A stretch of 32,711 nucleotides of DNA from Candidatus Woesearchaeota archaeon (lineage in GTDB: Archaea; Nanobdellota; Nanobdellia; Woesearchaeales; UBA10216): contig JACPBS010000008.1 of assembly GCA_016180195.1 (NCBI GenBank), positions 58,146 through 90,856 of the forward strand, in the 5' to 3' direction. The position numbers and the translations under genes are program-made. The notes beneath the pieces are model-generated. The model had not been told where the DNA came from and did not search any database. It was given only the letters and a program-made list of their open reading frames with translations. Each line of letters begins with the position of its first letter. Positions within the stretch are counted from its first letter, which is position 1. Below are positions 1 to 32,711 of this stretch, in pieces.

Positions 1-72
1 GGTGTGTTGACTGATGAGGGTGTGTTGACTGATGAGGGTGTGTTGACTGATGAGGGTGTGTTGACTGATGAA
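1..72 (+). repeat. Four in-frame copies of an 18-bp tandem repeat
   Basis: The unit GGTGTGTTGACTGATGAG encodes GVLTDE. Copies lie at 1-18, 19-36, 37-54 and 55-72. The first three are identical and the last differs at its final base. The array runs into the window edge, so its true copy number is unknown. Confidence 0.95.
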
Positions 73-1881
73 TCATTGGATGATAATGATATAGAAGTTG
101 TTGATGAGTGGTCTGATGGCGATGCACTGGATGAAACTCCCGATAAAGAATCCAGTTCAGGTATCCCCAACCAGGAAGAAATAGAAGCCTTGATTGCACT
201 AGCGGAAGCTGAAAGCAATGCAGAAGCAGAGGCAAGGAGCTTGGCTTTAAATGAAGGAAATGAAATGGCAACAGCCCAGGCTGAAGCTGAAGCACACGCC
301 ATGGCAGAAGCTGCTGCTCTCAGGGATGCAAACGAGCTTTCAGAGATCTGCTCTCCTGTAAGCTGCATACCATCCGAATCAATGGCAGTTGCCATATCAG
401 ATTCAACTTCGAAGGCATTCAGCCAGGCCACAGCATTAGCAAATGCGGCAGCCGCATCACTCGCTGATGCAGAGGCGGAAGCAAATTCCCATTCAGAATC
501 CATTGCAGCTGCCAAAGCACAGGCAATGACAGCTGCAGCCTCAGAAGCTGATTCAAGAGCAAAAGCTGAAAGCGAAACAGACAGCGACCTTAAGGCAATA
601 GCCCATTCAGAAGGCGCTTCATTCGCAAAAGCCGAGGCTGAAGCATTTGCAATCGCCGAAGCAGAAGCAGCAGCGCAAGCTAGCTCATTTTCAAAAGCCG
701 CCGCATTTGCAATGTCAATGGCAAAGGCATACGCAGATGCCACTGCAGAAGCAATGGCTGAAGTTCATGGATTGGCAAAGGCAAGCGGAAATGCAAAGGT
801 AAACATAGTATCAACTGCCAAGGCAAACGCGGAAGCTGCAGCTTTGGCTGCAGCTGATGCAGCTGCCAAGGCAAACGCAATGGCAGCCGCAGCAGCCGAA
901 TCATTCGCAAAGGCAAGCGCATTTTCAGAAGCAGCCTCATTTGCAGCCGCAAAGGCAAAAGCACATGCAGAGGCTGCTGCAGACCTGGGCTCCAGTGAGG
1001 CATCAATAAATGCCCATGTTGATGCACAGGATGCAGCGGAAGCAGCAGCAATGGCATCGGCAGATGCAAGCGCTGCAGCAGAAGCTGTCTCAAGCGCCAA
1101 AACCTCGTCCGAATCAGCATCACTTGCTGCGACCCAGGCAAAGTCCACTGTTGAATCAAAGCTGGAAATCGGAGCAGAGACCGAAGGAGGAGGCGTAACT
1201 CAAGTGTGCATACCGATAAATGATGCAATAAGAGCTGGCGAAAGGGCAAAAGCTCAGGTGCATGCAGAAGCAAAGGCTGCTGCAGAGCTAGAGGTAGCCG
1301 CTCACAAGCAGGCAATGGAGGAAGCAGAGGCTGAAGCACAATCCCACGCTGAAGCATCCGCCGACGCCCTTGAGGAAGCCAATGCTTTGTCAGGAGGGAC
1401 GCTCTTTGAGGAACTTTTCGGAGATGAACTGGACGATACCGGTGATTTCCCATTGGAAACGCAAGGTTCCGCAACAACAGCTACAACCAGCCAAGCAGTT
1501 GTGGAGGCAGATGACACGTCAGCAGCCTCAAGCGCAGTTTCCACTGCGCAGGCTGATGTTGAAGGCGTTGGGGACGCAACTGCATCTGTCCAAGCACACG
1601 CGATGTCTGCCTCAATAACAGATGATGCAGGATCAACAGGCTCTGCAGAGGCAGAATCCAATGCAGACGCTGGCATCTCCAATGAGCAGGGTGGAGCAGC
1701 TTCCGAGACATCCACCGAAGCCATTTCAGGAGCTTCGGCAGGAGAACACGGAAACCAGGATGATATGGCCAAGGCTGTATCCGATGTTCAGGTAACTATC
1801 GAGAACGCAGGAAGCAACCTGATCATAAGGATAAATGCATGGGCTGTTTCGCTTGTGAATAAGGTCTCAAGCATTTTTTAG
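1..1881 (+). CDS. Alanine-rich repetitive surface-type protein, 5' end missing
   Basis: The reading frame is open from the first base, so the true start and any signal peptide lie outside the window; the GTG at base 4 is only an internal repeat codon. Visible parts in order: four GVLTDE hexapeptides (residues 1-24), an acidic linker, then about 450 residues in which Ala falls at nearly every second position, interspersed with Ser, Glu, Lys and Thr. Three Cys break the pattern: a C-S-P-V-S-C pair near base 350 and one near base 1206. The C-terminal third is richer in Ser, Gly, Thr and Asp and ends in a weakly hydrophobic tail. It shares the short pattern N-A-x-V-N-x-V-S with the Ala-rich protein at 29982-30959. 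The next gene starts 5 bases after the stop. I do not recognise a family; a structural surface or extracellular role is inferred from composition and from the secreted neighbour. Confidence 0.8.
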   Translation, partial: GVLTDEGVLTDEGVLTDEGVLTDESLDDNDIEVVDEWSDGDALDETPDKESSSGIPNQEEIEALIALAEAESNAEAEARSLALNEGNEMATAQAEAEAHAMAEAAALRDANELSEICSPVSCIPSESMAVAISDSTSKAFSQATALANAAAASLADAEAEANSHSESIAAAKAQAMTAAASEADSRAKAESETDSDLKAIAHSEGASFAKAEAEAFAIAEAEAAAQASSFSKAAAFAMSMAKAYADATAEAMAEVHGLAKASGNAKVNIVSTAKANAEAAALAAADAAAKANAMAAAAAESFAKASAFSEAASFAAAKAKAHAEAAADLGSSEASINAHVDAQDAAEAAAMASADASAAAEAVSSAKTSSESASLAATQAKSTVESKLEIGAETEGGGVTQVCIPINDAIRAGERAKAQVHAEAKAAAELEVAAHKQAMEEAEAEAQSHAEASADALEEANALSGGTLFEELFGDELDDTGDFPLETQGSATTATTSQAVVEADDTSAASSAVSTAQADVEGVGDATASVQAHAMSASITDDAGSTGSAEAESNADAGISNEQGGAASETSTEAISGASAGEHGNQDDMAKAVSDVQVTIENAGSNLIIRINAWAVSLVNKVSSIF

Positions 1882-20089: not shown

Positions 20090-21685
20090 TCAAAGCTCGC
20101 ATACCAAATCGGGCGTCACCCTGATCACATTGTTGCCATCAGCAAAGTTCCCGGGATCAAACATGATATCAGTGAATAACCTATGGCAGATTGCATCCAG
20201 GCCCCTGGCACCGGTTTCTTCAGGGCACAGGAGGGCTATCTTCTCAGGGGTTCCGGGAGCTATTAACAGCTCATAGCCCCTAAGCCTCAGCATTTCAGTT
20301 ATGCTTGTGATCACAGACCTCTTAGCCTCTGTCAAAATCCTGACCTTATCTTCTACAGTTAATGGACGAAACACGGCAGTGAAGGGAAGCCTGGATACAA
20401 GCTCAGGCATCAACCCATATGCAATAAGGTCTCTTGGCTCAACCCTTGAAAGGGCATAACTATCCTCGCATGCTCCATCACTGAGGAATCCAAGCCTCCT
20501 CTGGCCTATGCCGAGCCTCCTCCTGATAATTGATTCCAAAGATGAATTAGTGCCACCCCCATAAAAAGCCCCTGCTGCGACAAACAAAATATTCCGGGTG
20601 TTTAAGGCATATTTCCTATCCTTGCCGGTTTGGACAGTAGCCTCCTCAACCCACCCTATCAATTCAGACTGTAGCTTCTCACCAAACCCATTAACTCCAT
20701 GCTCGTCACGGGCCAGCTTGTCGATCTCATCAAAAAATACGACCCCGAAAGGAATCTCGCTTGTAGTCTTGGCTCTCATCTGGCCCAGAACGCTTGAAAG
20801 ATTATCACCGACATACCCCTCACTGGACTTCCCTGTGACTTTTGTCTGCAAAAAAGGGAGACACGCATTTTCCGCAAGCAATGAGACCATATAAGTCTTG
20901 CCCACTCCTGTAGGCCCAACAAGCAGCAAATTTTCCTTCCTCATACCCTTTCCCTGGTTCCTGACAAAAAGCATGTAATCGCAGAAAGCAACAGCAACAC
21001 ATTTTTTTGCCTCATCCTGCCCGATGATGTACTGATCCAGGTAAGAAACTATGGACTTCGGACTTTCCCAATTAATCCCCTTTCTGGCAATATTATCCGG
21101 TTGTCGCAATGTACTGCTTTGTCCAGCAGGCTTAGACCTGCTAAGAAGACCCCTTATTTGCGTGCCTGATGCTGTAATGTTATAACTGGCAGGGGAACCA
21201 GCCCGATTCTTATAAAACCCGATCTGCATGGTAGACTTTTCGTTCTCTGCAATCAGGATAACAGGATGCAATCCATAGGGACCTTCCAGGCCATATACAG
21301 GGTAAGTAAAAACAACTGTTTTTCCCTCCTTTTCGATAGAAGCTTCGAATTCCAAACCGGTCAGCTTCAAGGGAAAATAAAGAACATCATCCTTATGTCT
21401 ATGCTCTTCCACCCCTCCTGAACGGTTAAGCGTGTAATATCTTGCATGCAAAAATTCGGTTCTTTGCACGAAGCCTATAGCGACCTCCGTTAGCTTTCCG
21501 TCAATAGTGAAGCGGCCATGTATAACATCCTTGTTTGTAACAACAGGAAGAATATAAGCCGGGGACTCCGCTTTTTTGTTCCTTGCACAGCCATAACCGA
21601 ACCAAACGCTTTCACTGAATTGAATGCCTCCCAGGGCCTTTTCAAGCTCAGATTCCGGCTCATGCCTGAAGGTTATTCTTCCCAC
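20090..21685 (-). CDS. ClpX-like AAA+ ATPase with an unassigned N-terminal domain
   Basis: The product has 531 residues and a GTG start. Residues from about 206 on match the ClpX core: L-D-Q-Y-I-I-G-Q-D-E-A-K-K, Walker A G-P-T-G-V-G-K-T (257-264), pore-region G-Y-V-G-D, Walker B F-F-D-E-I-D-K-L-A (D319, E320), N-I-L-F-V-A-A-G-A-F, a loop with L-G-F (398-400) at the place of the ClpP-docking I-G-F, V-E-P-R-D-L-I-A-Y-G-L-M-P-E-L, and sensor-2 G-A-R-G-L-D. There is no ClpX zinc finger. Instead, residues 1-205 are beta-rich (L-K-L-T-G-L-E-F-E-A-S, V-V-F-T-Y-P-V-Y-G-L-E) and unknown to me. It probably unfolds proteins for a protease not encoded here. ClpX is uncommon in archaea, so bacterial origin by transfer is possible. 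Confidence 0.85.
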   Translation of the reverse strand: MGRITFRHEPESELEKALGGIQFSESVWFGYGCARNKKAESPAYILPVVTNKDVIHGRFTIDGKLTEVAIGFVQRTEFLHARYYTLNRSGGVEEHRHKDDVLYFPLKLTGLEFEASIEKEGKTVVFTYPVYGLEGPYGLHPVILIAENEKSTMQIGFYKNRAGSPASYNITASGTQIRGLLSRSKPAGQSSTLRQPDNIARKGINWESPKSIVSYLDQYIIGQDEAKKCVAVAFCDYMLFVRNQGKGMRKENLLLVGPTGVGKTYMVSLLAENACLPFLQTKVTGKSSEGYVGDNLSSVLGQMRAKTTSEIPFGVVFFDEIDKLARDEHGVNGFGEKLQSELIGWVEEATVQTGKDRKYALNTRNILFVAAGAFYGGGTNSSLESIIRRRLGIGQRRLGFLSDGACEDSYALSRVEPRDLIAYGLMPELVSRLPFTAVFRPLTVEDKVRILTEAKRSVITSITEMLRLRGYELLIAPGTPEKIALLCPEETGARGLDAICHRLFTDIMFDPGNFADGNNVIRVTPDLVCEL

Positions 21686-21759: not shown

Positions 21760-22341
21760 ATGGCTGCATCCAACTTCGGGAATGCGATTGATTTCTTTGA
21801 CAAGATCGGGATATTTGACGTTGTCATCCCATTCCTCTTTGTGTTCACGATAGTATTTGCAATACTCGAGAAAACACGGATATTCGGAGTCGAAAAGTTC
21901 CCGGGGGGAGAAGAGTACACAAGGAAGAACCTGAATGCCATGACTGCATTCTCAATAGCCTTCTTCGTGATAGCATCTGCAAACCTTGTCCGGGTAATAA
22001 ACGAGGTTGCGGGCAACATGATACTGCTGCTGATAGGCTCAGTATTCTTCCTCATGCTGGTAGGCTCCTTTCACCAGGAGACCAAGGAAGGCTTCTTCCT
22101 GGAGAAAGGGTTCACAAGGAACGCATTCATAGGGATAATGTTCACAGGGCTCGTGGTGATCTTCCTGCACGCGATAAGGACAAAAGACGGCAAGACGTGG
22201 CTTGACCAGATATTCGAATGGATCAGGGACTTTGGAGTGAATGATGCAGTGCCTTCCATAGTGCTGGCATTGGTAATGATTGGCCTGATCCTGTACATAA
22301 CCCAGTCACCAAAAGCACCTGAAGGGCAAGCAGGCAAATGA
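21760..22341 (+). CDS. Four-helix membrane protein A of a paralogous trio
   Basis: The product has 193 residues. Four membrane helices lie at about residues 20-37, 60-85, 87-103 and 123-140, with a fifth near 165-183. The first block, I-G-I-F-D-V-V-I-P-F-L-F-V-F-T-I-V, is followed by a loop with K-T-R-I-F-G and then N-L-N-A-M-T-A-F-S-I-A-F. The same block order recurs in the next two genes, which are similar in size, so the three look like an ancient tandem duplication. I know no function. The trio heads the region that also encodes a FlaI-type ATPase and FlaJ-type membrane protein, so a role in that machine is plausible. The start is supported by a TATA box 26 bases upstream. Confidence 0.82.
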   Translation: MAASNFGNAIDFFDKIGIFDVVIPFLFVFTIVFAILEKTRIFGVEKFPGGEEYTRKNLNAMTAFSIAFFVIASANLVRVINEVAGNMILLLIGSVFFLMLVGSFHQETKEGFFLEKGFTRNAFIGIMFTGLVVIFLHAIRTKDGKTWLDQIFEWIRDFGVNDAVPSIVLALVMIGLILYITQSPKAPEGQAGK

Positions 22342-22393
22342 TTAAATTTTTAAAGAGGCACGTCTAAAATTCATCAAAAAGCGGTGATATGAT

Positions 22394-22984
22394 TTGGCTG
22401 AAGGGTTCAACGATGTTTTTTTAATGCTGGATAGCCTTGGGGTCCTTGATTCACTCCTGCCATTCCTTCTCATATTTACGATAATATACGCGATTTTAAA
22501 CAAGACAAAAATAATCGGCGAGGGGAGGAAGAATTTTAACGTAATAGTGGCGCTGACACTTTCCTTGATGGTGGTTATACCTCACATAACAGGAAGGTAT
22601 CCCAATCCGCAAAGCGACCCTGTGGTGATAATCAACACGGCCATTCCAAACATATCAGTCATAATAGTGGCGATCCTGGCAGTCCTGCTCATCATAGGTA
22701 TTTTCGGGAAGAACCTGGATATCGCAGGAACATCCCTTGCAGGATGGGTCGGCATCGGGGCGTTCATAGCTGTTGCTTGGATCTTCGGATCCGCAGCCGG
22801 GTTTTTCGGGGAAGGCTTCTTGGCATTGCCCGCATTCCTCCAGGACCCTGACACGCAGGCGCTAATAGTCATGATACTTGTGTTCGGCCTCATAATAATG
22901 TTCATAACATCTGAAAGGGAAGGTCCTAGCGTAACAGGAGGGCTCGGGAAACTCATCGATGGGATCGGCCGATCAATAAAATAA
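22394..22984 (+). CDS. Four-helix membrane protein B of a paralogous trio
   Basis: The product has 196 residues. It starts at TTG (22394): GGTGAT at 22383-22388 lies 5 bases upstream, and the ATG at 22389 is out of frame. L-G-V-L-D-S-L-L-P-F-L-L-I-F-T-I-I-Y aligns by eye with protein A, including the following N-K-T-K-I-I-G and N-F-N-V-I-V-A-L-T-L-S. Further helices lie at about 87-107, 115-137 and 150-170. Long Ile/Val/Ala stretches with Gly suggest tightly packed helices. The next gene starts 4 bases after the stop. Its function is unknown and its context is shared with the pilus-like cluster. Confidence 0.8.
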   Translation: MAEGFNDVFLMLDSLGVLDSLLPFLLIFTIIYAILNKTKIIGEGRKNFNVIVALTLSLMVVIPHITGRYPNPQSDPVVIINTAIPNISVIIVAILAVLLIIGIFGKNLDIAGTSLAGWVGIGAFIAVAWIFGSAAGFFGEGFLALPAFLQDPDTQALIVMILVFGLIIMFITSEREGPSVTGGLGKLIDGIGRSIK

Positions 22985-22988
22985 TAAA

Positions 22989-23546
22989 ATGGCAACTGTC
23001 CTCGACTTGTCCTTGTTGAACACATTCATGCCAGTATTCAGCTGGATTTTCTCATTCCTCCTGGTTTACGGGTTCCTTGAAGTGACACAGATATTCAAGA
23101 ACAGGGGAATCCATGCCATGATTGCCTTTGTGTTCTCGATCATGGTCGCCATATCAGGAACTGCGACAGCCACGATAACTGCAATGACACCATGGTTCCT
23201 GATAATGATATTCTTCATATTCATGGTTTACCTGATCTCAAACTTCATGGGCATTGGCACTTCAGAAATCCTCGGGGCCATAGGAGGGAAGGGTGCAGTA
23301 TGGTGGATATTGATAATAGGATTCATAATACTGGCATCCGGATTAAGCCAGACCTTTGGACAGAATCTCCTGGCTGCCCGCCAGGGAGGCAACGCCACAG
23401 AGGTTCCAACAACAACCGGACCTGGCTCAACCCATGGGCAGGCAGTGCTTTTCGTGTTCTCAAACCCAAAAGTGCTAGGAATGGTGCTGATCTTCTTCAT
23501 AGCTGCGCTGACAGTGGCAATGATGACAAGCCCTGTCAAGCCTTGA
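22989..23546 (+). CDS. Four-helix membrane protein C of a paralogous trio
   Basis: The product has 185 residues and lacks the charged N-terminal run of the other two. The helix F-S-W-I-F-S-F-L-L-V-Y-G-F-L-E-V-T-Q-I-F aligns with the first block of A and B, then N-R-G-I-H-A-M-I-A-F-V-F-S-I-M-V-A matches their second. Helices follow at about 62-82 and 98-118, then a Gly/Thr-rich outside-type loop and a last helix at about 162-180. It is the last of the plus-strand trio and ends 3 bases from a convergent coiled-coil gene. Confidence 0.8.
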   Translation: MATVLDLSLLNTFMPVFSWIFSFLLVYGFLEVTQIFKNRGIHAMIAFVFSIMVAISGTATATITAMTPWFLIMIFFIFMVYLISNFMGIGTSEILGAIGGKGAVWWILIIGFIILASGLSQTFGQNLLAARQGGNATEVPTTTGPGSTHGQAVLFVFSNPKVLGMVLIFFIAALTVAMMTSPVKP

Positions 23547-23549
23547 GCC

Positions 23550-24197
23550 TTATTTGGACTTCTTCAGTTCCTTAACAGTTCTGGAAAGCTCGTTGACGTT
23601 TTCCGTAAATGTAGGCAGAATCTTCTGGAACACCTTCTCCAGGGCCTTAAGCTCAGTCCCCACGTTAGTGATGTTCTGATCATAGTCGCTGATCTTGGAC
23701 AACACGGCCTTCTGCAAATTGTCAAAACTCTGCTTCAGTTCCGTCTGTCTCTGCTCGAGCGCCTTCATGTTTGACTCCATGGTGTTTTTCCATTCAACTA
23801 TCTTGTTAATATCCTTAAGAAGATCATTCCATTTCTCCTCAATAATCGCTTCTGCCATCTCCTCGATCTTTTCATCATATCCCTGTTCAGCATCCTGCGG
23901 TGCCTGTTCCTCAAAAGCAGGCTCCTCAGGCGGGAGATTTGGCATCTGCTGGGGCTGCTGCCCCTCGTTGAAGAATGGAGCCCCGCTTATCTTCTCGCCA
24001 GACCTTCCGATCTCAGCCTGGTTAAGAGCATCAAAAATCTGATGGGTCTTGTAGCCGCTCCTCTGAAGGCTTTCAATGACCTTTGCATTGGAAGCTCCCT
24101 GCTGCCTAAGCCTTACAACCTCATCCAAAGCAGAAACCTGGGGTTGCTGGGGCTGCTGCTGGTTAACCTCTTTTTTCCCCATTCCGAATATTGCCAT
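23550..24197 (-). CDS. Coiled-coil protein with Gln/Pro-rich linker
   Basis: The product has 215 residues and no signal peptide. The layout is a short M-A-I-F-G-M-G-K-K head, a Gln/Pro run, a small helical domain at about 22-65 (V-V-R-L-R-Q-Q-G, then S-G-Y-K-T-H-Q-I-F-D-A-L), a Pro/Glu/Gln linker, and a long coiled coil at about 105-213. The helical domain resembles a UBA/winged-helix-sized module but I cannot name it. Its TATA box overlaps the stop of the adjacent coiled-coil gene. Given its position inside the pilus-like region, it may be a cytoplasmic scaffold like the FlaC/D/E coiled-coil proteins of archaella; that is an analogy, not homology I can show. Confidence 0.78.
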   Translation of the reverse strand: MAIFGMGKKEVNQQQPQQPQVSALDEVVRLRQQGASNAKVIESLQRSGYKTHQIFDALNQAEIGRSGEKISGAPFFNEGQQPQQMPNLPPEEPAFEEQAPQDAEQGYDEKIEEMAEAIIEEKWNDLLKDINKIVEWKNTMESNMKALEQRQTELKQSFDNLQKAVLSKISDYDQNITNVGTELKALEKVFQKILPTFTENVNELSRTVKELKKSK

Positions 24198-24218
24198 TTC
24201 AGACTTTACCTGATGAAG

Positions 24219-24228
24219 ATTTATAAAT
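24219..24228 (-). promoter_or_regulatory. TATA box of the coiled-coil gene, containing a stop codon
   Basis: AATTTATAAAT on the minus strand is centred about 26 bases before the ATG at 24197. The TAA at 24221-24223 is also the stop of the upstream gene. Confidence 0.6.
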
Positions 24229-24595
24229 TTTGTTTATTCCCAGAATCAACAGCCTCCCTCACGATTTTCTCAACCTCGTTATGCGTAACAAAATTAAGCG
24301 GCTCCCAGAGATTCAAGTATTTCTTCAGGACATCAACTTCCTCCTTTTTGGAAAGCGTTGAAAGCTCCTTCGCTATGATATCAATTTTTGCGTTTATTGA
24401 CTCAAGGCCTTTTTTTATTTCTGCAATCTCCAAATTAATGGCCTTTATCTCTGAATTCACCTTCTTCCCAGACGACAGGGAGTTCTGCTCATCCACCTGA
24501 ATCCTCCTCACCAGATTGCTGTACCTCTCTTCGAGAGTCCTCAACCCCCTGAGAGATTGCTCGGTCTGCTGGGTTTCCTGAAAGTTTTGCTGCAT
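24221..24595 (-). CDS. Coiled-coil protein, possible accessory of the pilus-like machine
   Basis: The product has 124 residues. Residues 1-90 are a coiled coil with regular Leu/Ile spacing (E-I-K-A-I-N-L-E-I-A-E-I-K-K-G-L). A conserved-looking terminal module follows, Y-L-N-L-W-E-P-L-N-F-V-T-H-N-E-V-E-K-I-V. A coiled coil ending in a Trp/aromatic module is the style of FlaD/FlaE-type archaellum proteins and of accessory coils in DPANN pilus loci, though I cannot show homology. It is transcribed divergently from the ATPase gene. The minus-strand TATA-like TTTATTTATC at 24621-24630 lies about 30 bases before its ATG. Confidence 0.75.
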   Translation of the reverse strand: MQQNFQETQQTEQSLRGLRTLEERYSNLVRRIQVDEQNSLSSGKKVNSEIKAINLEIAEIKKGLESINAKIDIIAKELSTLSKKEEVDVLKKYLNLWEPLNFVTHNEVEKIVREAVDSGNKQNL

Positions 24596-24602
24596 AGGAA
24601 CA

Positions 24603-24642
24603 TATATAAACAGGCTGTCCGATAAATAAATGTTTCGGTGGT
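24603..24642. promoter_or_regulatory. Divergent promoters and Shine-Dalgarno of the ATPase gene
   Basis: The plus-strand TATA box TATATAAAC (24603-24611) predicts a start near 24634, just before GGTGGT (24637-24642), which is 6 bases from the ATG at 24649. The minus-strand box TTTATTTATC (24621-24630) serves the coiled-coil gene. Confidence 0.5.
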
Positions 24643-24648
24643 CAGATA

Positions 24649-26919
24649 ATGGAGGGTCTAAAAGAGGAGTGCTTCGGACACGACATAATAAGGGAGGGCG
24701 AGGACAATGTACTTAGGATAAGCTGCGACCAGTGCCCGTATTTCCCCTCAATAGAGGACAATGCCCTTGTCATGTCCAAGACAATTGACCTAATGGCTTC
24801 TAACCCGGGAATAACCCGGCTTGTTTTTTACCAGCGGCGGGATTATGAGTATGATTACGAGCAGACCAAGATACTTATGGAGATCGCCAAGATACAAAGC
24901 CACCTGGTGAAAAAAGGATTGGGGTCTTACGGGTCTTTCGGGTTTAACGCAAGGTCGGACAAGAGCTTCATAGAGCTTCAGAACCTCATACAAAACACCC
25001 TGAGATCAGACCCGATAGCAGCATACGTTGAGCTAAAGCGAGTCCACAGGAGGGAAATGCTGCTTCTCGACTCGATCCCCGCCGAATATGCAACCCAAAT
25101 CAAGACTTACATGGGCCTGCTGGAAAGGATAATCAGGCTGCTTGAGGGAACAAGGTTGATTGCCCTGGCAAAATCAAGCATAGCAGGCTACAAGCTTGGA
25201 GACAGGTCAGTATATAGGGAAATATTCAGGCCGATGACAAAGCCTGATTTCATGTTCACAAAGATCATGGCATCCTTCCCTCCTGAAGGCGAGGAAATAG
25301 ACAGCTACAAGGTTGGGAACACAGACATACTAATATTCAGGGTACCTGATTCCATCAAGCTTCTTTACCACATGACCCCTCCCGAGTTTAAGCTTTCCGA
25401 GGAGAAATACGAGCTCCTTGACACCGCCCGCTCAATCATTTCCGAGCACAAGCCGCAGAGATCTGAATTCGTCGACCCAGAGAGGCTCAGGCAAGTATTC
25501 ACGAATGTCGGCTCTGACCTGATTGAGGAACTTGCATCTTTCAGAGGCATGAAGCTTAGGAACTCGGAGATCAGGGAGCTCGCAAGCATACTTGTAAGGC
25601 ACACTATTGGATTCGGACTAATAGAAGTCCTTCTGCAGGATGAGAAGGTGCAGGACGTAACTGTCAACAGCCCAATGGGAACCATACCAGTATTCCTGGT
25701 TCATCAGGAATTTGATGACTGCTTCACAAACATAATCCCCACACCCAATGAAGGCGATTCCTGGGCTTCAAAGCTCAGGCTCCTGTCAGGAAGGCCTCTT
25801 GACGAAGCCAACCCAATACTTGACAGCGAGCTTGTAATTCCGAACGCAAGAGCAAGGGTGTCAGTAGTCAGCCCGCCGCTAAACCCATCAGGGTTGGCAT
25901 TCGCACTAAGAAGGCATCGTGACAAGCCGTGGACGCTGCCCCTTTTCGTGAAAAGCAGGATGATGACAAACCTTGGTGCCGGCCTTTTGAGCTTTCTGAT
26001 TGACGGGTCAAGGACTATTCTGGTAGCGGGCACTAGAAGCGCAGGAAAAACATCCCTCCTCGGAGCTATAATGACTGAAGTGATGAGAAAATACAGGCTG
26101 ATCACGATTGAGGACACGCTGGAGCTTCCGGTCTCGGCGCTAAAGGATCTTGGATACAATATACAGTCCCTAAAGGTTGCGAGCGCAATGACAAAAGGGA
26201 CGAACGAGGTTTCCGCAGAGGAGGGGATAAGGACAACGCTCAGGCTCGGCGATTCAGGGCTGATAGTAGGAGAAGTAAGGTCGCTGGAGGCAAAGGCCCT
26301 TTACGAGGCAATGAGGGTCGGGGCCCTTGCAAACCTGGTTGCAGGAACCATACACGGGGATTCACCCTACGGGGTATTTGACAGGGTGGTCAATGATCTA
26401 GGCGTGCCCAAAACATCGTTCAAGGCCACCGACATAGTGGTAGTGGCAAACCCGATAAGGAGCGCTGACGGGCTTCATAGATGGAGAAGGATAACCCAGA
26501 TCACGGAAGTCGGAAAATTCTGGGAAAACGATCCAGTCCTAGAAAAAGGATTCAAGGACCTGATGAAGTACGATTCACAGACAGACTCGCTTGAACCAAC
26601 AGTTGACCTCCTGAATGGAGAAAGCGATGTACTGAAAGCCATAGCAGGAAATGTCAAGGAATGGTCTGGCAGCTGGGATGCTGTATGGGATAACATCCTC
26701 CTCAGGGCAAAATTAAAGGAAGCCCTGATCGGGTATTCAGAATCCGGAGGCATGCCTGAACTTCTGGAAGCACCCTTCGTCATCCAATCAAACGACCAGT
26801 TCCACAGGGTATGCGACTCGATAAAGGATGAAATAGGCTCCCTTGACAGCAGGAGAATTTTCTTCGAGTGGAATGAATGGATGAAGCGGGCTGTGAAAAA
26901 AACAACACTTGCAAAGTGA
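24649..26919 (+). CDS. Type II/IV secretion ATPase, FlaI/TadA type, with Cys/His N-terminus
   Basis: This hexameric motor ATPase would power assembly of a pilus, archaellum-like filament or secretion complex. The product has 756 residues. The N-terminus has C8-x2-H11 and C26-x2-C29, a possible zinc site. A long helical domain (about 50-330) precedes the CpaF/FlaI core: N-terminal sensor part (about 340-440), Walker A G-T-R-S-A-G-K-T-S (461-469, K467), Asp box I-T-I-E-D-T-L-E-L-P, Walker B G-L-I-V-G-E-V-R (537-544) and His box A-G-T-I-H-G-D (565-571). About 120 residues follow the core. It is larger than typical FlaI (about 530 residues). The FlaJ-like gene starts 4 bases after its stop. Confidence 0.92.
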   Translation: MEGLKEECFGHDIIREGEDNVLRISCDQCPYFPSIEDNALVMSKTIDLMASNPGITRLVFYQRRDYEYDYEQTKILMEIAKIQSHLVKKGLGSYGSFGFNARSDKSFIELQNLIQNTLRSDPIAAYVELKRVHRREMLLLDSIPAEYATQIKTYMGLLERIIRLLEGTRLIALAKSSIAGYKLGDRSVYREIFRPMTKPDFMFTKIMASFPPEGEEIDSYKVGNTDILIFRVPDSIKLLYHMTPPEFKLSEEKYELLDTARSIISEHKPQRSEFVDPERLRQVFTNVGSDLIEELASFRGMKLRNSEIRELASILVRHTIGFGLIEVLLQDEKVQDVTVNSPMGTIPVFLVHQEFDDCFTNIIPTPNEGDSWASKLRLLSGRPLDEANPILDSELVIPNARARVSVVSPPLNPSGLAFALRRHRDKPWTLPLFVKSRMMTNLGAGLLSFLIDGSRTILVAGTRSAGKTSLLGAIMTEVMRKYRLITIEDTLELPVSALKDLGYNIQSLKVASAMTKGTNEVSAEEGIRTTLRLGDSGLIVGEVRSLEAKALYEAMRVGALANLVAGTIHGDSPYGVFDRVVNDLGVPKTSFKATDIVVVANPIRSADGLHRWRRITQITEVGKFWENDPVLEKGFKDLMKYDSQTDSLEPTVDLLNGESDVLKAIAGNVKEWSGSWDAVWDNILLRAKLKEALIGYSESGGMPELLEAPFVIQSNDQFHRVCDSIKDEIGSLDSRRIFFEWNEWMKRAVKKTTLAK

Positions 26920-26923
26920 AATA

Positions 26924-29101
26924 ATGGCAGGGGAAGAGGAGCTTTTAAAAAGGTACAGGAGAAAGCTTGAAGAGGAATTCTCACAGCAGGCATCCAGCAG
27001 GAATACGTTCTCTGCAAACTACGTTGACTTCAAAAAGGAATTCCTCCCAAAGCACCTCTCAGCATACGAAAAGCTGTGCAACCTCAGTGAGAAGATACTG
27101 AAGATAAATCCTGACAAAAAGTCGACAGAGGATCTTACAGAGCAGCTTGAGCTTTGCCACCTGGGGGTAACCCCTGCAGGGGTATACAGCCTTGCCATAC
27201 TTTCGGGAATAGTCATCTTCGTCGCGGTAAGCCTCACAGGATTCCTGCTCTTCGGCTCGATATTTTTCATTGCCTACGCCCTTATCGTAGCATCTGTTAT
27301 CCTGGCAGCACTGATAAAGCTGCCTGAATTTTTCGGAAACAGCTGGCGCCTAAAGGCATCAAACCAGATGGTACAGTCAATTTTCTATGTATCTACGTAC
27401 ATGAGACACACGTCAAACCTGGAGCTTGCAATAATGTTCGCCTCAGACCACCTCTCTCCGCCGCTCTCAATTGACCTGAAAAAAGTATTATGGGACGTGG
27501 AAACAGAAAGATATGGGTCAATAAAGGAAAGCCTTGATAACTACCTTGAACGATGGAAGAAATGGAACCCTGAATTCATAGAGTCATTCCACCTGATAGA
27601 AGGATCCCTCTTCGAGTCGTCGGAGGAAAGAAGGCTTTCCATGGTTGACAAGGCCCTCAACGTCATGCTGGAGGAGACCTATGAAAAGATGCTAAGGTAT
27701 GCACACGACCTGAAAGGGCCAATAACAATGCTCTACATGCTCGGCATAATACTCCCTATCCTCGGTCTTGTAATACTGCCACTAGTTGCATCGTTCATGA
27801 CTAACGAGAAAGGAGGCCTTGATTCAGGCCAGCTCGCCCTTTACCTAATCTTGCTGTATAACATAACAATGCCGCTCGGAATATTCTACCTCAGCAAGAT
27901 AGTGCTCTCAAAGAGGCCGACAGGGTATGGTGAAACAGACATAAGCGAAGAAAACCCTGAGCTGAGAAAATACAGGAATTGCATCATTAAAGTAGGGAAC
28001 AATGAGACTGCGATAAACCCGATATACATTTCAATAGCCATAATAACCCTTTTCCTGCTCATAGGCCTTAGCCCGATCCTGGTGAAGCTGGTTGTCCCAA
28101 AAGAACTCCTTGTATCAGGGCCTGATGCTGAAGGATCAGTCGACATTTTCAAGAAAATGATGCTTGATTACAGGCTTGATTCGAACGACAACCTGATCGG
28201 CCCGTATGGGATAGGAGCTGCGATAATAAGCTTCCTTATCCCCCTCGCATTCGGTGTCGGCATAGGAATATACTACTCCGTAAGATCATCCAAGGTAGTG
28301 AAGTTCAGGGAGAACACCAAAAAACTAGAGGACGAATATGCATCGGCATTATTCCAGCTGGGAAACAGGCTTGGCGACGGCATGCCTGCAGAAATCGCCT
28401 TTGGAAAGGTAGCTGAAACCACCAGAGGCTCAGCTTCCGGAGACTTCTTCGCCCTGGTGAGCATAAACATACGAAAAAAAGGGATGGGAATCCAGCAGGC
28501 AATCTTCGACCCCATAAAAGGGGCGCTGATATATTTTCCATCATCCATCATAGAAAGCTCAATGAAGGTCCTCCTGGAAAGTTCAAGAAAAGGCCCTCTC
28601 ATAGCATCCCAGGCTCTCATAAATGTGTCAGAATACATAAAGCAGATCAACAGGGTAAATGAAAGGCTCAGGGACCTGATGGCAGACGTGATATCAGACA
28701 TGAAGCAGCAGACCCACATACTGGCACCCGCAATAGCCGCCATTGTAGTGGGGATTACCTCGATGATTGTTACAATACTTGGAAACCTGAACCAGCAAAT
28801 CGGCAAGATAGGCACGGATACACCAACCCAGTCACTAAAAGGAGTGGTTGACATCTTCGGACAGGGCATACCGACATACTATTTCCAGATAATAGTCGGC
28901 ATATACATTGTAGAGATCGTGTACATACTCACCATACTAACCAATGGGATAGAAAACGGGGCGGACCACCTCAGCGAGGAAAACAATCTCGGGAAAAACC
29001 TGACCCGAAGCACGATACTCTACTCAGTAATATCAGCGATAGTGGTCATAGCATTCAACCTCATAGCTGCAATGATAATGCAAACACTCACCCCTATGTG
29101 A
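26924..29101 (+). CDS. FlaJ/TadB-C-like membrane platform protein with two T2SF domains
   Basis: From the ATG at 26924 the product has 725 residues (a TTG start 5 codons earlier lies inside the ATPase gene). A charged N-terminal cytoplasmic part with Cys52 and Cys78 precedes helices at about 85-107 and 110-130. Then comes a cytoplasmic T2SF helical domain (about 145-260), helices near 262-290, 298-322, 357-383 and 420-445, a second T2SF domain (about 455-595, with L-F-Q-L-G-N-R-L-G-D-G-M-P-A-E-I-A-F), and closing helices near 598-620, 650-675 and 697-722. This is the doubled platform typical of archaeal FlaJ-type proteins. It would work with the adjacent ATPase. The last 8 bases overlap the convergent DUF3096 gene. 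Confidence 0.9.
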   Translation: MAGEEELLKRYRRKLEEEFSQQASSRNTFSANYVDFKKEFLPKHLSAYEKLCNLSEKILKINPDKKSTEDLTEQLELCHLGVTPAGVYSLAILSGIVIFVAVSLTGFLLFGSIFFIAYALIVASVILAALIKLPEFFGNSWRLKASNQMVQSIFYVSTYMRHTSNLELAIMFASDHLSPPLSIDLKKVLWDVETERYGSIKESLDNYLERWKKWNPEFIESFHLIEGSLFESSEERRLSMVDKALNVMLEETYEKMLRYAHDLKGPITMLYMLGIILPILGLVILPLVASFMTNEKGGLDSGQLALYLILLYNITMPLGIFYLSKIVLSKRPTGYGETDISEENPELRKYRNCIIKVGNNETAINPIYISIAIITLFLLIGLSPILVKLVVPKELLVSGPDAEGSVDIFKKMMLDYRLDSNDNLIGPYGIGAAIISFLIPLAFGVGIGIYYSVRSSKVVKFRENTKKLEDEYASALFQLGNRLGDGMPAEIAFGKVAETTRGSASGDFFALVSINIRKKGMGIQQAIFDPIKGALIYFPSSIIESSMKVLLESSRKGPLIASQALINVSEYIKQINRVNERLRDLMADVISDMKQQTHILAPAIAAIVVGITSMIVTILGNLNQQIGKIGTDTPTQSLKGVVDIFGQGIPTYYFQIIVGIYIVEIVYILTILTNGIENGADHLSEENNLGKNLTRSTILYSVISAIVVIAFNLIAAMIMQTLTPM

Positions 29102-29548: not shown

Positions 29549-29968
29549 AATCAACAGTATATGCTATAATATAATCTCAAATGCTCATATCACAATAGAA
29601 CAATGCAGACAAAAAGTGGCTGCTGCCAACAAGTAAATATTCTTTGTATAGCGAGCGCATCAAAATAAGAATGCAATGCGCCGGCCGGGACTTGCGATGC
29701 AAAAAGGACCGCTTTCCACAATTCGAAATTCCGGACAATGGCATCGCCATCATCTCCCGGATAAACGGCTTGGAAGGCCATTGTCATGCCATTAGACCAC
29801 CGGCGCACAAGTGGAAAAGAGCGTTATCGCATATTTTTAAATTTTTGCAATTCCAGCAAAAGAAGGCTTTTTACAATGCCAAAAATTGAAAATAAGCCTC
29901 TTTTTCGGAATCGTTTCAAGAAACTAATATGCTTGTGAAACAATGATTCTCCAGGACAATATGAACTT
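29549..29968. other. Gap without a convincing gene, containing inverted repeats
   Basis: Two reading frames of 72 (minus) and 81 (plus) codons overlap each other here, with no Shine-Dalgarno and no recognisable product. Bases 29677-29807 hold nested inverted repeats, listed separately. A strong TATA-like stretch (TTTTTAAATTTTT, about 29835-29847) and a weaker one near 29928 could serve the Ala-rich gene at 29982. Confidence 0.55.
29677..29807. ncRNA. Nested inverted repeats, possible structured RNA
   Basis: TGCGCCGG (29677-29684) pairs with CCGGCGCA (29800-29807). Inside, ACAATGGC (29735-29742) can pair with GCCATTGT (29777-29784), or ATGGC (29738-29742) can instead pair with GCCAT at 29746-29750 around ATC. 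The GC-rich stems stand out against an AT-rich gap. Strand and transcription are unknown. Confidence 0.35.
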
Positions 29969-29976
29969 GGAGGTGA
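29969..29976 (+). promoter_or_regulatory. Shine-Dalgarno that fixes the start of the Ala-rich gene
   Basis: GGAGGTGA, a near-perfect complement of archaeal 16S rRNA 3' ends, lies 5 bases before the ATG at 29982. It rules out the in-frame ATG at 29943. Confidence 0.75.
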
Positions 29977-29981
29977 GATTG

Positions 29982-30959
29982 ATGAGGCTATTTATTGCAG
30001 GAGTATTAGTTGCAATAATGTTGTTAATGCCTGTAGCCATAGCTGATGGAACATCCATGGCTTTAATACAGTCAAGCTCTAATGCAGGAGCTATGTCACA
30101 GGCTGAGGCAGAGGCATTGGCAGCAGCAAAGGCCATGGCAGATTCATGGTCGACTTCACTAGGACACGCAGCTGCAGCATCAGATGCACAGGCAGCAGCC
30201 AAAGCTAGTGCGGCCTCAAAGGCAGACGCAGCTGCAGACGCAGTTGTAATACAAGACCCAATGGCAGCGGCAGAGGCATTCGCAGAGGCAGCCGCATACG
30301 CCAGGGCAGAAGCTGAAGCATGGGCAACAGCAGCGGCAGAATCAAATGCCCAGGCAGATTCAGCAGCAGACGCAATTGGATTTGCAGTGGCAACATCCAA
30401 AGCTTATGCAAAGGCAATAGCAGAGTCAAATGCTATGATAAATGCACAGACACAGGGCAATGCAATGGCAATTGGAACAGCTGATGCGTGCGCAAGAGCA
30501 AGTGCACTTGCCAAGGCATCGGCAGAAGCAGCAGCCAAGGCAAGCGCGATGGCAGCATCCGTTGCAACAGCAGCCGGCAATGCGGACGCATTTGCAGCGG
30601 CAGCAGCCAAGGCAGCGGCAGATGCAAGCGCATATGCAGCGGCAGCAGCACAACTTATGCCGAATTCAGACGCCGCAGCTAGCGCCAGTGCGGACGCAAT
30701 CGCAGCAGCGAATGCAGCAGCAGCTGCAAAGGCAGCAGCATTGACAGCGTCTGAAGCTGTTTCAGCATCCAACACATACCTTCTTGCAATAGCCAAGAAT
30801 GTATCCAATGCAAAGGACCTTGCTGATGCATGCGCAAACGCACAGGTAAATGTAGTTTCCAAGGAACCGACGAAAATCGTCAAGAATGTTCCCAAAGTAA
30901 AATGCAAGAACATTCTTTGGAGGGGAAAAGTAGTGAAGAGACTGTGCTACAGAAGGTAG
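29982..30959 (+). CDS. Secreted alanine-rich protein with basic Cys-containing tail
   Basis: The product has 325 residues: a signal peptide (M-R-L-F-I-A-G-V-L-V ... A-I-A), about 240 residues with Ala at roughly every second position (A-E-A-E-A, A-K-A-S-A, A-D-A-S-A patterns), and a basic C-terminus of about 40 residues (N-A-Q-V-N-V-V-S, then K-C-K-N, then R-L-C-Y-R-R). Four Cys are present: two in D-A-C-A-R/N and two in the tail, so disulfides are possible. The composition and the N-A-x-V-N-x-V-S pattern match the protein at 1-1881. I know no family; a structural role on or outside the cell is inferred. A hairpin-U-tract terminator follows its stop, then the PepSY-domain gene 58 bases on. 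Confidence 0.85.
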   Translation: MRLFIAGVLVAIMLLMPVAIADGTSMALIQSSSNAGAMSQAEAEALAAAKAMADSWSTSLGHAAAASDAQAAAKASAASKADAAADAVVIQDPMAAAEAFAEAAAYARAEAEAWATAAAESNAQADSAADAIGFAVATSKAYAKAIAESNAMINAQTQGNAMAIGTADACARASALAKASAEAAAKASAMAASVATAAGNADAFAAAAAKAAADASAYAAAAAQLMPNSDAAASASADAIAAANAAAAAKAAALTASEAVSASNTYLLAIAKNVSNAKDLADACANAQVNVVSKEPTKIVKNVPKVKCKNILWRGKVVKRLCYRR

Positions 30960-31017: not shown

Positions 31018-32711
31018 ATGAGAAACTGGACTTTGGCAATCGTAATGGTACTGATAATGATGCCTGCAGTTAACGCCCAGTCATCATCTTCAGGATACAT
31101 AAGCGATTTTTTGGAAAGAATATGGTCTATGATCGAGGAAACGCAAACCTTTGAACAGCCCGATCAGGAAGTAATTGAAGACGATCAAGGCGATGATGTT
31201 GCAAAGGCAAAGCAGATTGTCTACAGACAAACAGGAATAGACATGGATGATGCAGAAGCAGAAGTGTTAGAGTGGAATGGAAAGAAGTCTGTTCTTATCA
31301 CTTCAGCCAAATTCGATGATTCGGGGAGTGGCAAAATGCAATCCAGCTTCATCGAGGCGATGGTAAATCCGGAAGATAATTCCATCTCATCAATTACGAT
31401 GAACACATTTTCCAGATCAGAAAATCTTAATCTCGTACCTGAAGAAGCAGCCCAGACAATGGCTGACATGATCTCGGATTTGTTACTGAAAGGGAAAAAT
31501 ATACAGGCTGCAATTGCAGAAGCTGAAGAAGCAATAACGGCTGACAGGATTGCCAGGCGAGAAATAAAGGATAGGTTTGAGGACGATGCAGAGATCGAAG
31601 ACCTGTTTGAATTAGAGGTTGAGGATGAGTTTGAGTTTGAAGTTGAGGATGAGTTTGAATTAGAGATTGAAGATGAGTTTGAGGATAAGTTTGAGTTTGA
31701 GGATGAGTTTGAATTAGAGATTGAGGATGGCGTGATCAAGAAAGTTAAAAAATTACCCAACGCAACGAATATTACGAATGTCACGGAGGCTATCGCAAAT
31801 GCAAGCGCGAATGCAACAGCTAACGCGACTGCAAATGTAACTGTAAATGTTACAATAAATGCCACGGCAAATGCGAGTGCAAATGCAACAGCGAATGTAA
31901 CAGTTGTTGTTAAAGTACCTGTGCCTGTTGTAGTTGTTCCAATAGTGCAGCCTTTACCTCCGGCTGTCCCTCCAATTCCTGTTGTGATTGTGCAGGTTCC
32001 GCCTCCGGTGCCTCCGCCGGTTCCGCCTCCGGTGCCTCCGCCGGTTCCGCCTCCGGTGCCTCCGCCGGTTCCTCAGATACCTCCGCAGGTTCCGCCTCCG
32101 GTACCAGAAATACCTCCACCAGAAGCGGGCGCTGAAATACCTGTCCTGATTGAGGTGCCTGTTCCAGAGGTATTGCCTGAGGTTCCAGAAGAGATACCTG
32201 AAGTAGTGCCTGAAGAGATTCCAGAACAGCTTCCAGTTTCAGGCGAATGGATGGATCCTGACGTGTTTTATGTGCTCCTTGAGGATTATGTGCCAGAAGC
32301 TGAGGAAGCTGAGGGAGTTGAGTCAGATAGTTTTGATGAGCCTTATGAGGACTATCAGGATGAAACATCTGAAGAAACATACACTGGGGATGATTACATT
32401 CAGGATGAAACATCTGAAGAAACATACACCGGGAATGATTATGACATATCTTCCTATGATTCCTATGACGGACAGAATTATGCCGGCGAGGGATATGCTG
32501 TTCCTGAATATGAATCATATGGTGGCGATAATTATGATATTCCTGCCTATGATGAATCAGCATACGAAGGAAGTTCAGAATCAGGGGCAGTGACCGATAT
32601 GAATGATGTTGGTGGTGATGTTGGCGACGCAGGTGGTGATGTTGGTGATGTTGGCGACGCAGGTGGTGATGTTGGTGATGTTGGCGACGCAGGTGGTGAT
32701 GTTGGTGATGT
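31018..32711 (+). CDS. Secreted multidomain protein: PepSY-like, sequon tract, Pro stalk, Gly-Asp repeats (3' end missing)
   Basis: The frame stays open from the ATG at 31018 to the window edge: 564 complete codons and no stop. Order: signal peptide (1-20, ending V-N-A-Q); a Ser-rich linker; a PepSY-like domain at about 58-128, similar to that in the protein at 1887; a helical segment (135-190); acidic repeats of F-E-L-E-V-E-D type (197-237); 12 N-glycosylation sequons in 48 residues (248-295); a Pro/Val stalk (301-406); an acidic Tyr-rich part with a 15-residue direct repeat (Q-D-E-T-S-E-E-T-Y-T-G at 447 and 462); and G-D-V-G-D-A-G repeats from about 532. This is the architecture of a glycosylated cell-surface stalk protein. 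A weak Shine-Dalgarno (GGGGTGGT) precedes the ATG. Any anchor lies beyond the window. Confidence 0.85.
   Translation, partial: MRNWTLAIVMVLIMMPAVNAQSSSSGYISDFLERIWSMIEETQTFEQPDQEVIEDDQGDDVAKAKQIVYRQTGIDMDDAEAEVLEWNGKKSVLITSAKFDDSGSGKMQSSFIEAMVNPEDNSISSITMNTFSRSENLNLVPEEAAQTMADMISDLLLKGKNIQAAIAEAEEAITADRIARREIKDRFEDDAEIEDLFELEVEDEFEFEVEDEFELEIEDEFEDKFEFEDEFELEIEDGVIKKVKKLPNATNITNVTEAIANASANATANATANVTVNVTINATANASANATANVTVVVKVPVPVVVVPIVQPLPPAVPPIPVVIVQVPPPVPPPVPPPVPPPVPPPVPPPVPQIPPQVPPPVPEIPPPEAGAEIPVLIEVPVPEVLPEVPEEIPEVVPEEIPEQLPVSGEWMDPDVFYVLLEDYVPEAEEAEGVESDSFDEPYEDYQDETSEETYTGDDYIQDETSEETYTGNDYDISSYDSYDGQNYAGEGYAVPEYESYGGDNYDIPAYDESAYEGSSESGAVTDMNDVGGDVGDAGGDVGDVGDAGGDVGDVGDAGGDVGD
31606..31728 (+). 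repeat. Acidic Phe/Glu/Asp coding repeat
   Basis: The repeat encodes variants of F-E-L-E-V-E-D-E and F-E-F-E-D-E. Hydrophobic and acidic residues alternate, which suits a beta-strand or a calcium-binding acidic surface. GAG/GAT/TTT codons dominate, with local near-identity indicating slippage-type growth. Confidence 0.8.
31759..31902 (+). repeat. Tract of 12 N-glycosylation sequons
   Basis: In 48 codons there are 12 N-x-S/T sequons (x is Ala, Val or Ile), mostly spaced every 4 residues. Codons for Asn, Ala and Thr vary among copies (AAC/AAT, GCA/GCG/GCT, ACA/ACT/ACG), so the pattern is kept at protein level rather than by recent DNA duplication. Confidence 0.9.
31996..32067 (+). repeat. Three copies of a 24-bp repeat encoding V-P-P-P-V-P-P-P
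   Basis: The unit begins GTTCCGCCTCCGGTGCCTCC. Copies at 31996, 32020 and 32044 are identical, which points to recent expansion within the proline stalk. Confidence 0.92.
32356..32445 (+). repeat. Two 45-bp direct repeats in the acidic Tyr-rich region
   Basis: Units at 32356-32400 and 32401-32445 both begin CAGGATGAAACATCTGAAGA (Q-D-E-T-S-E-E) and differ at a few bases near the end. Confidence 0.85.
32611..32711 (+). repeat. 30-bp tandem repeat encoding G-G-D-V-G-D-V-G-D-A, running off the window
   Basis: A short first unit (32611-32631) is followed by identical 30-bp units at 32632-32661 and 32662-32691 and a partial unit to the last base. The true copy number lies outside the window. Confidence 0.93.

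What the first reader, a model, noticed from the sequence alone, without database searches (positions are those of the whole stretch)
21760..29101. Type IV pilus-like machine with an unfamiliar set of accessory subunits
A FlaI/TadA-type ATPase and a doubled FlaJ-type platform are preceded by three mutually similar multi-helix membrane proteins and two divergent coiled-coil proteins. None of the usual archaellum partners (FlaH, FlaF, FlaG), no pilin with a class III signal and no prepilin peptidase are seen. The similarity among the three membrane proteins (P-F-L-x-x-F-T-I block, then K-T-x-I-x-G, then a second aliphatic helix) is seen directly by eye. That they form one machine with the ATPase is inferred from position. 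A secretion or surface-assembly system with an unusual membrane ring is possible, and its products might be the Ala-rich proteins at the window ends.
Basis: partly seen in the sequence, partly recalled or inferred. Interest (0 to 1): 0.62.

Follow-up and report, generated by a model that had tools for sequence, protein, structure and literature searches.

The report
Motor half of an archaeal pilus machine
The window carries the engine of a pilus-like machine shared by nearly all archaea of one phylum of tiny, probably host-dependent cells; its likely filament genes lie elsewhere in the same genome, and in the window's own order of these archaea one of them often ends in an enzyme that cuts bacterial cell walls, which hints at what the machine touches.

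Summary
The seven genes are real and at the stated coordinates. The genome is a woesearchaeote (DPANN). The ATPase is near-universal in the phylum (266/279 genomes), as is the first membrane-protein family (269/279). The layout TM-TM-TM> <CC1 <CC2 ATPase> platform> recurs across about 40 families, so the 'one machine' inference is well supported. The three membrane proteins are mutually homologous five-TM proteins without a known relative or fold.

The absence of pilins and peptidase is only local. In other orders a run of pilin-like genes follows the platform gene (57% of same-strand ORFs against 5% upstream). The orthologous operon, ending in the same RPA-like gene, and a prepilin peptidase lie elsewhere in the window's genome. 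In Woesearchaeales the last pilin-like gene often carries a peptidoglycan-enzyme domain (SLT, M23, YkuD; 10/30 above cut-off, 15/30 with weaker hits).

ATPase + platform + two coiled coils was already reported in DPANN (Hamm 2024, 'Locus 2'), and so were peptidoglycan enzymes in Woesearchaeota. The membrane trio, the pilin operon and the pilin-enzyme fusion I found nowhere in the held literature. Verdict: a type IV filament machine, new variant of a known kind; its role in contact with bacterial walls is inferred, not shown.

The parts
21760..22341 (+). TM1: five-TM membrane protein, 193 aa, first of three paralogues
   Evidence: hydropathy; family in 269/279 genomes of the phylum; AF2 model pLDDT 79, pTM 0.47, no PDB or viral fold match
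22394..22984 (+). TM2: five-TM membrane protein, 196 aa, paralogue of TM1 (TTG start)
   Evidence: hhalign with TM1 E 3.5e-32
22989..23546 (+). TM3: five-TM membrane protein, 185 aa, more distant paralogue
   Evidence: hhalign with TM1 1e-17 and TM2 1.5e-16; 57/59 relatives
23550..24197 (-). CC1: short helix-turn-helix-like N-terminal motif, P/Q-rich linker, C-terminal coiled coil, 215 aa; convergent with TM3 (3 bp gap)
24221..24595 (-). CC2: coiled-coil protein, 124 aa, conserved C-terminal K-Y-x-x-L-W-x-P-x-x-F-V-T motif
   Evidence: weak Nup88 hit, weak FlaC_arch hits in 9/29 relatives, weak reovirus sigma-1 hits
24596..24648 (.). 53-bp divergent intergenic region between CC2 and ATPase, presumed to hold both promoters
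   Evidence: promoter function inferred, not tested
24649..26919 (+). secretion/pilus ATPase (T2SSE, TadA/FlaI type), 756 aa, with a long N-terminal region without PDB match
   Evidence: 266/279 genomes; intein insertions in some relatives
26909..29101 (+). FlaJ/GspF-type membrane platform, 730 aa, overlaps the ATPase by 11 bp

Best explanation
The interval is the motor half of a type IV filament machine of the DPANN phylum Nanoarchaeota (here a woesearchaeote). The ATPase, probably a hexamer, drives the GspF/FlaJ-type platform. The two coiled-coil proteins most likely form a cytoplasmic scaffold, in the position the FlaC/D/E proteins hold in archaella. The three five-TM paralogues most likely form the membrane-embedded part around the platform. 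The substrates are pilin-like proteins with class III-like signals, encoded right after the platform gene in other orders and in a separate operon in the window's genome, cut by the single prepilin peptidase found there. The last, largest pilin-like protein probably sits at the tip or is pushed out; in Woesearchaeales it often carries a peptidoglycan-enzyme domain, so the machine probably works in cell-cell contact, at least sometimes with bacteria. Shown by computation: homologies, gene order, distribution, signal enrichment, domain fusions. Inferred: that these parts form one complex, that a filament is built, the roles of the trio and coiled coils, the tip position, and the target.
For: ATPase in 266/279 and TM1 family in 269/279 genomes, with 7 shared absences (P 8e-9). 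Order and orientation conserved in named Woesearchaeota and in other orders, the latter scored with HMMs trained on the former. Platform fold match. Downstream of the platform gene in other orders 106/187 same-strand ORFs have a class III-like signal against 7/133 upstream (P 4e-24); in nine loci a gene of family A9 starts within 200 bp of it. A8 and A9 pilin-like families in 39/39 relatives. The window genome's operon ends in the same RPA-like gene as the contiguous operons. Prepilin peptidase in the genome and in 57/59 relatives. The only PDB hits of A9 at E<=1 are a flagellin and a protein found as a 139-chain assembly (weak). Terminal pilin-like proteins: SLT, M23 or YkuD above cut-off in 10/30, none in 19 A9 proteins, with catalytic motifs; terminal gene on the same contig and strand as A9 within about 13 kb in 22/30 genomes.
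Against: Four of seven genomes lacking both ATPase and TM1 keep A9 (3/7 lost against 2/23, P 0.07), so the pilin-like operon may serve another ATPase; the window genome has two more type IV pilus-type loci. In two deep families (loci L164-L167) the membrane proteins are not next to the ATPase. The TM1 model is of modest confidence (pTM 0.47) and matches nothing. Half of the terminal proteins show no peptidoglycan domain, and the 30 were drawn with an SLT-bearing query, which may favour SLT. Shared absences may be assembly gaps. No expression or structure data.
Confidence: 0.6

Rival explanations
1. An ordinary type IV adhesion or DNA-uptake pilus; the trio and coiled coils are lineage-specific helpers and the peptidoglycan domains are incidental cargo of one subunit.
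For: The core (ATPase, platform, pilin-like proteins, peptidase) is standard; in other orders the last pilin-like protein is only 240-262 aa, with little room for an enzyme domain.
Against: Trio and coiled coils are as conserved in place as the ATPase; enzyme domains of several unrelated folds recur at the end of the same pilin-like family.
Confidence: 0.25
2. A type II secretion-like pseudopilus that pushes enzymes, including the terminal protein, out of the cell instead of building a long surface pilus.
For: Many different small pilin-like subunits and one large last subunit recall T2SS minor pseudopilins; enzyme domains on the terminal subunit.
Against: No secretin or other T2SS-specific part seen; archaea of this group lack an outer membrane (general knowledge).
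Confidence: 0.25
3. A derivative of the archaellum motor (motility).
For: ATPase scores about as high with FlaI as with TadA; weak FlaC_arch hits for CC2 relatives.
Against: No FlaH, FlaF, FlaG or archaellin hit among the interval's proteins; best PDB match of the ATPase is a GspE, then CpaF, before FlaI.
Confidence: 0.05
4. The trio is an unrelated membrane transporter that only sits next to the pilus motor.
For: No functional data; in some genomes the trio is on another contig or away from the ATPase.
Against: Conserved adjacency over about 40 families, co-distribution with the ATPase, no match to any transporter family or fold.
Confidence: 0.12

Closest known systems
DPANN type IV pilus 'Locus 2' with coiled-coil proteins (Hamm et al. 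2024, PMC11291902)
   Same: CpaF-type ATPase, TadC-type platform and two coiled-coil proteins together, in Woesearchaeota, Pacearchaeota and Nanoarchaeota; weak Nup88 and sigma-1 resemblance of CC2 mirrors their 'nucleopore' and sigma-1 remarks
Archaeal type IV pili, clades 1-4 (Makarova, Koonin, Albers 2016, PMC4858521)
   Same: VirB11/TadA-family ATPase, TadC/FlaJ platform, class III-type pilins, peptidase
   Different: The models I read contain no trio of five-TM paralogues and no divergent coiled-coil pair; that paper notes nanoarchaeal ATPases of clade 4F without identifiable cognate pilins
Archaellum
   Same: FlaI-like ATPase, FlaJ-like platform, coiled-coil accessory proteins
   Different: No FlaH, FlaF, FlaG or archaellin in the interval; has a membrane trio not known from archaella
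Large extracellular lytic transglycosylases of Woesearchaeota/Pacearchaeota (PMC8204110, PMC9723730) and archaeal peptidoglycan hydrolases that kill bacteria (PMC12352652)
   Same: SLT-type and other peptidoglycan enzymes in archaea without peptidoglycan, read as attack on bacteria
   Different: No link to pilins or a type IV machine in the passages read; 'pilin' and 'type IV' do not occur in PMC12352652

Membership tests
Type IV filament superfamily | secretion-type hexameric ATPase | tested here: met
   T2SSE above cut-off; TadA/FlaI profiles; PDB GspE/CpaF/FlaI hits; hexamer itself not tested
Type IV filament superfamily | GspF/FlaJ/TadC-type membrane platform | tested here: met
   OutF cytoplasmic-domain fold, prob 0.99; weak T2SSF in 6/32
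Type IV filament superfamily | pilins with class III-type signal | tested here: met
   not in the window; operon on another contig of the genome and contiguous with the motor in other orders
Type IV filament superfamily | prepilin peptidase | tested here: met
   Peptidase_A24 at G000 C11:16722, 54-57 bits; 57/59 relatives
Type IV filament superfamily | assembled filament | not testable with these tools
   needs microscopy
DPANN Locus 2 (Hamm 2024) | CpaF + TadC + two coiled-coil proteins in one locus | tested here: met
DPANN Locus 2 (Hamm 2024) | sequence homology to NAR1_03220 and NAR1_01690 | not tested
   those sequences are not in the collections at hand
Archaellum | FlaH, FlaF, FlaG and archaellin present | tested here: not met
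   no hit among the interval's proteins in Pfam or NCBIfam
Archaellum | FlaC/D/E protein | tested here: inconclusive
   9/29 CC2 relatives hit FlaC_arch at E<=1, best 0.02
VirB2-type T4SS pilin (for the trio) | PF18895 above cut-off | tested here: not met
   14 bits against 26.6; 2/41 members weakly

The most novel reading that the evidence does not exclude
Woesearchaeota use this phylum-wide machine to press an exchangeable peptidoglycan-cutting tip protein against bacterial envelopes, as bacterial-host episymbionts or predators; the three five-TM paralogues form a membrane complex not known from any other type IV system.
Probability: 0.33. Interest if true: 0.87.

Novelty: new variant of a known kind. 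Interest (0 to 1): 0.64.

Why it matters
Host contact defines these small-celled archaea, yet the hosts of uncultured Woesearchaeota are unknown. A motor conserved in about 95% of the phylum, a named set of likely substrates and a tip candidate with recognisable enzymes give concrete proteins to express and label, and turn 'do some DPANN archaea live on bacteria?' into a testable question. The trio is a candidate new part of the type IV filament family.

Tried and rejected
Ala-rich window-end proteins as substrates: Sec-type or no signals, not conserved beside the motor in the nearest relative. Trio as known transporter or T4SS pilin: no hit above cut-off, no PDB sequence or fold match, no viral fold match. 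Sequence proof of an internal repeat in the platform: none. Homology of CC1 to CC2: hhalign probability 48%, unconvincing. Co-loss of pilin-like A9 with the motor: inconclusive. PDB searches with A7, A8 and A9 gave only weak or generic hits.

Full report
What is there. The window lies on a 120-kb contig of a 1.23-Mb, 97% complete genome. The nearest named records are Candidatus Woesearchaeota MAGs. Seven ORFs fill 21760-29101: TM1, TM2, TM3 on the + strand, CC1 and CC2 on the - strand, then ATPase and platform on the + strand. Gaps are 52, 4, 3, 23, 53 and -11 bp: TM3 and CC1 are convergent, CC2 and ATPase divergent, ATPase and platform overlap.

Identity of the parts. The ATPase passes the Pfam T2SSE cut-off, scores with TadA and FlaI profiles, and as a family profile finds GspE, CpaF and FlaI in the PDB; fourteen relatives show 72% mean column identity. 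The platform has no Pfam hit of its own, but 6 of 32 relatives touch T2SSF and its AlphaFold model (pLDDT 80, pTM 0.76) matches the OutF cytoplasmic domain with Foldseek probability 0.99 and TM 0.73, although the E-value is poor. The three membrane proteins are homologous to each other (control), each with five hydrophobic segments, and resemble nothing known. CC2 has faint FlaC, Nup88 and reovirus sigma-1 resemblances, none conclusive.

Is it a unit? ATPase homologues at E<=1e-50 occur in 266 of 279 genomes of the phylum, the TM1 family in 269 of 279; seven genomes lack both, more than expected by chance (P 8e-9), with the caveat that neighbours can be lost together in assembly gaps. In 80 named Woesearchaeota loci plus the window, the divergent CC2 is next to the ATPase in 57 of 68 testable, the platform follows in 63 of 69, three same-strand membrane proteins lie upstream in 38 of 50. 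In 37 loci from other families and orders, scored with HMMs trained on the first set, the figures are 31/37, 34/36 and, for at least two membrane proteins, 27/35. Exceptions: two deep families keep ATPase and platform but not the adjacent membrane genes (L164-L167).

The missing pilins. In non-woesearchaeal orders the platform gene is followed by genes beginning like MEKRGQSLPLNVIVIAIIVVVVLVVLVAYFLGG. A simple class III-like rule fits 106 of 187 same-strand ORFs downstream and 7 of 133 upstream. Two families were defined, A8 (about 120 aa, conserved cysteines) and A9 (about 280 aa); both occur in 39 of 39 near relatives. In the window's own genome they lie on contig C25 at about 85.6-93.1 kb (locus L191) as an operon of about nine genes, several with clear signals (KKKG|ISPAIIILATIAFTA, KRG|QYIVVYSLIGLT, KKG|EQTAIIVTLVF), closed by a replication-protein-A-like gene. 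The same RPA-like gene closes the operon in loci where motor and pilin genes are contiguous (L133, L134, L136, L144). A prepilin peptidase is on contig C11 and in 57 of 59 relatives. A caution: four of seven genomes without the motor keep A9, and this genome has two further pilus-type loci, so the pairing of operon and motor is likely but not proven.

The last pilin-like gene. In the window's genome it is 429 aa, with an SLT lytic-transglycosylase domain just above Pfam's cut-off. In 30 Woesearchaeales genomes (selected with its N-terminal 180 aa after a full-length search) the same N-terminal domain is followed by SLT (4), M23 (5 above cut-off, 1 below), YkuD (1), and sub-threshold SLT_3, VanY/M15, 3D or NlpC/P60 (1 each): 10 of 30 above cut-off, 15 of 30 in all, against 0 of 19 A9 proteins. 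M23 members keep HxxxD and HxH, SLT members keep E-S...G-[IL]-M-Q (the motif scan did not find these in the weakest members). The terminal gene lies on the same contig and strand as A9, within about 13 kb, in 22 of 30 genomes. These archaea are not known to make peptidoglycan (general knowledge), which points outward, to bacteria.

How it likely works. The ATPase turns ATP into motion of the platform, which lifts pilin-like subunits out of the membrane after peptidase cleavage; that is established for type IV filaments in general and inferred here. The trio, whose conservation tracks the motor and not the variable substrates, is best read as the membrane frame of the motor; the coiled coils as its cytoplasmic frame. 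The large terminal protein is best read as a tip or exported subunit whose enzyme is exchanged between lineages. Tip position, filament and target are unproven.

What is known. Hamm et al. 2024 (PMC11291902) described two conserved pilus loci in cluster 2 DPANN, the second with CpaF, TadC and two coiled-coil proteins, expressed in Nanohaloarchaeum antarcticus; the window's core fits that description, though direct sequence comparison was not possible. Makarova et al. 2016 (PMC4858521) catalogued archaeal pili but mostly without DPANN. Jarett et al. 2018 (PMC6142677) discussed a FlaJ/TadC homologue in Nanoarchaeota. Peptidoglycan enzymes in Woesearchaeota and the idea of bacterial hosts or prey are published (PMC8204110, PMC9723730, PMC12352652). 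Not found in the held open-access literature: the five-TM trio, the phylum-wide pilin-like operon with its RPA neighbour, and the fusion of peptidoglycan enzymes to its last pilin-like protein. Subscription papers, supplements and preprints were not searched, so this is not proof of novelty.

Noticed in passing
L191:5610-13141 (own genome, contig C25): Pilin-like operon of about nine genes ending in an RPA-like gene; the last pilin-like protein carries an SLT domain. Exchangeable peptidoglycan-enzyme domains (SLT, M23, YkuD) on the same N-terminal domain in relatives.
   Followed up: yes
L202, L203, L204 (relatives G008, G001, G025): The ATPase gene is interrupted by inteins (Intein_splicing + LAGLIDADG) near residues 486-491 of the window protein or at a second site (G025); split matches suggest more cases (G009, G018, G055, G064).
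   Followed up: partly
window 4-1881 with 1887-2765, and 29943-30959 with 31018-32709: Two pairs at the window ends: an Ala-rich low-complexity protein followed by a secreted protein with a similar PepSY-like segment (KTGIEASEG.../RQTGIDMDDA...); PepSY-like DPANN proteins are mentioned in PMC6393860. Short tandem repeats at both window ends.
   Followed up: no
L133:5079-6093 and equivalents in L134, L144, L149: In other orders a PRC-barrel-like 90-aa gene sits directly before TM1, with a TraB-like gene (not recorded in L149) and a membrane-protein gene on the opposite strand upstream.
   Followed up: no
window 20090-21685 (-): 531-aa ClpX/Cdc48-type AAA protein directly beside TM1; not conserved next to the cassette in the nearest named relative (L046).
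   Followed up: partly
L078 and L113: Public records titled Patescibacteria and Methanosarcinales carry this cassette; probably mislabelled or mixed assemblies.
   Followed up: no
L235:651-3413 (own genome, contig C22): A separate 921-aa frame, predicted membrane protein, matches the SLT part of the terminal pilin-like protein.
   Followed up: no
downstream of the platform in many Woesearchaeales loci (e.g. L053, L070, L087): A small OB-fold-like gene and replication or tRNA-synthetase-type genes follow the cassette; OB-fold genes thus flank both motor and pilin operons.
   Followed up: no
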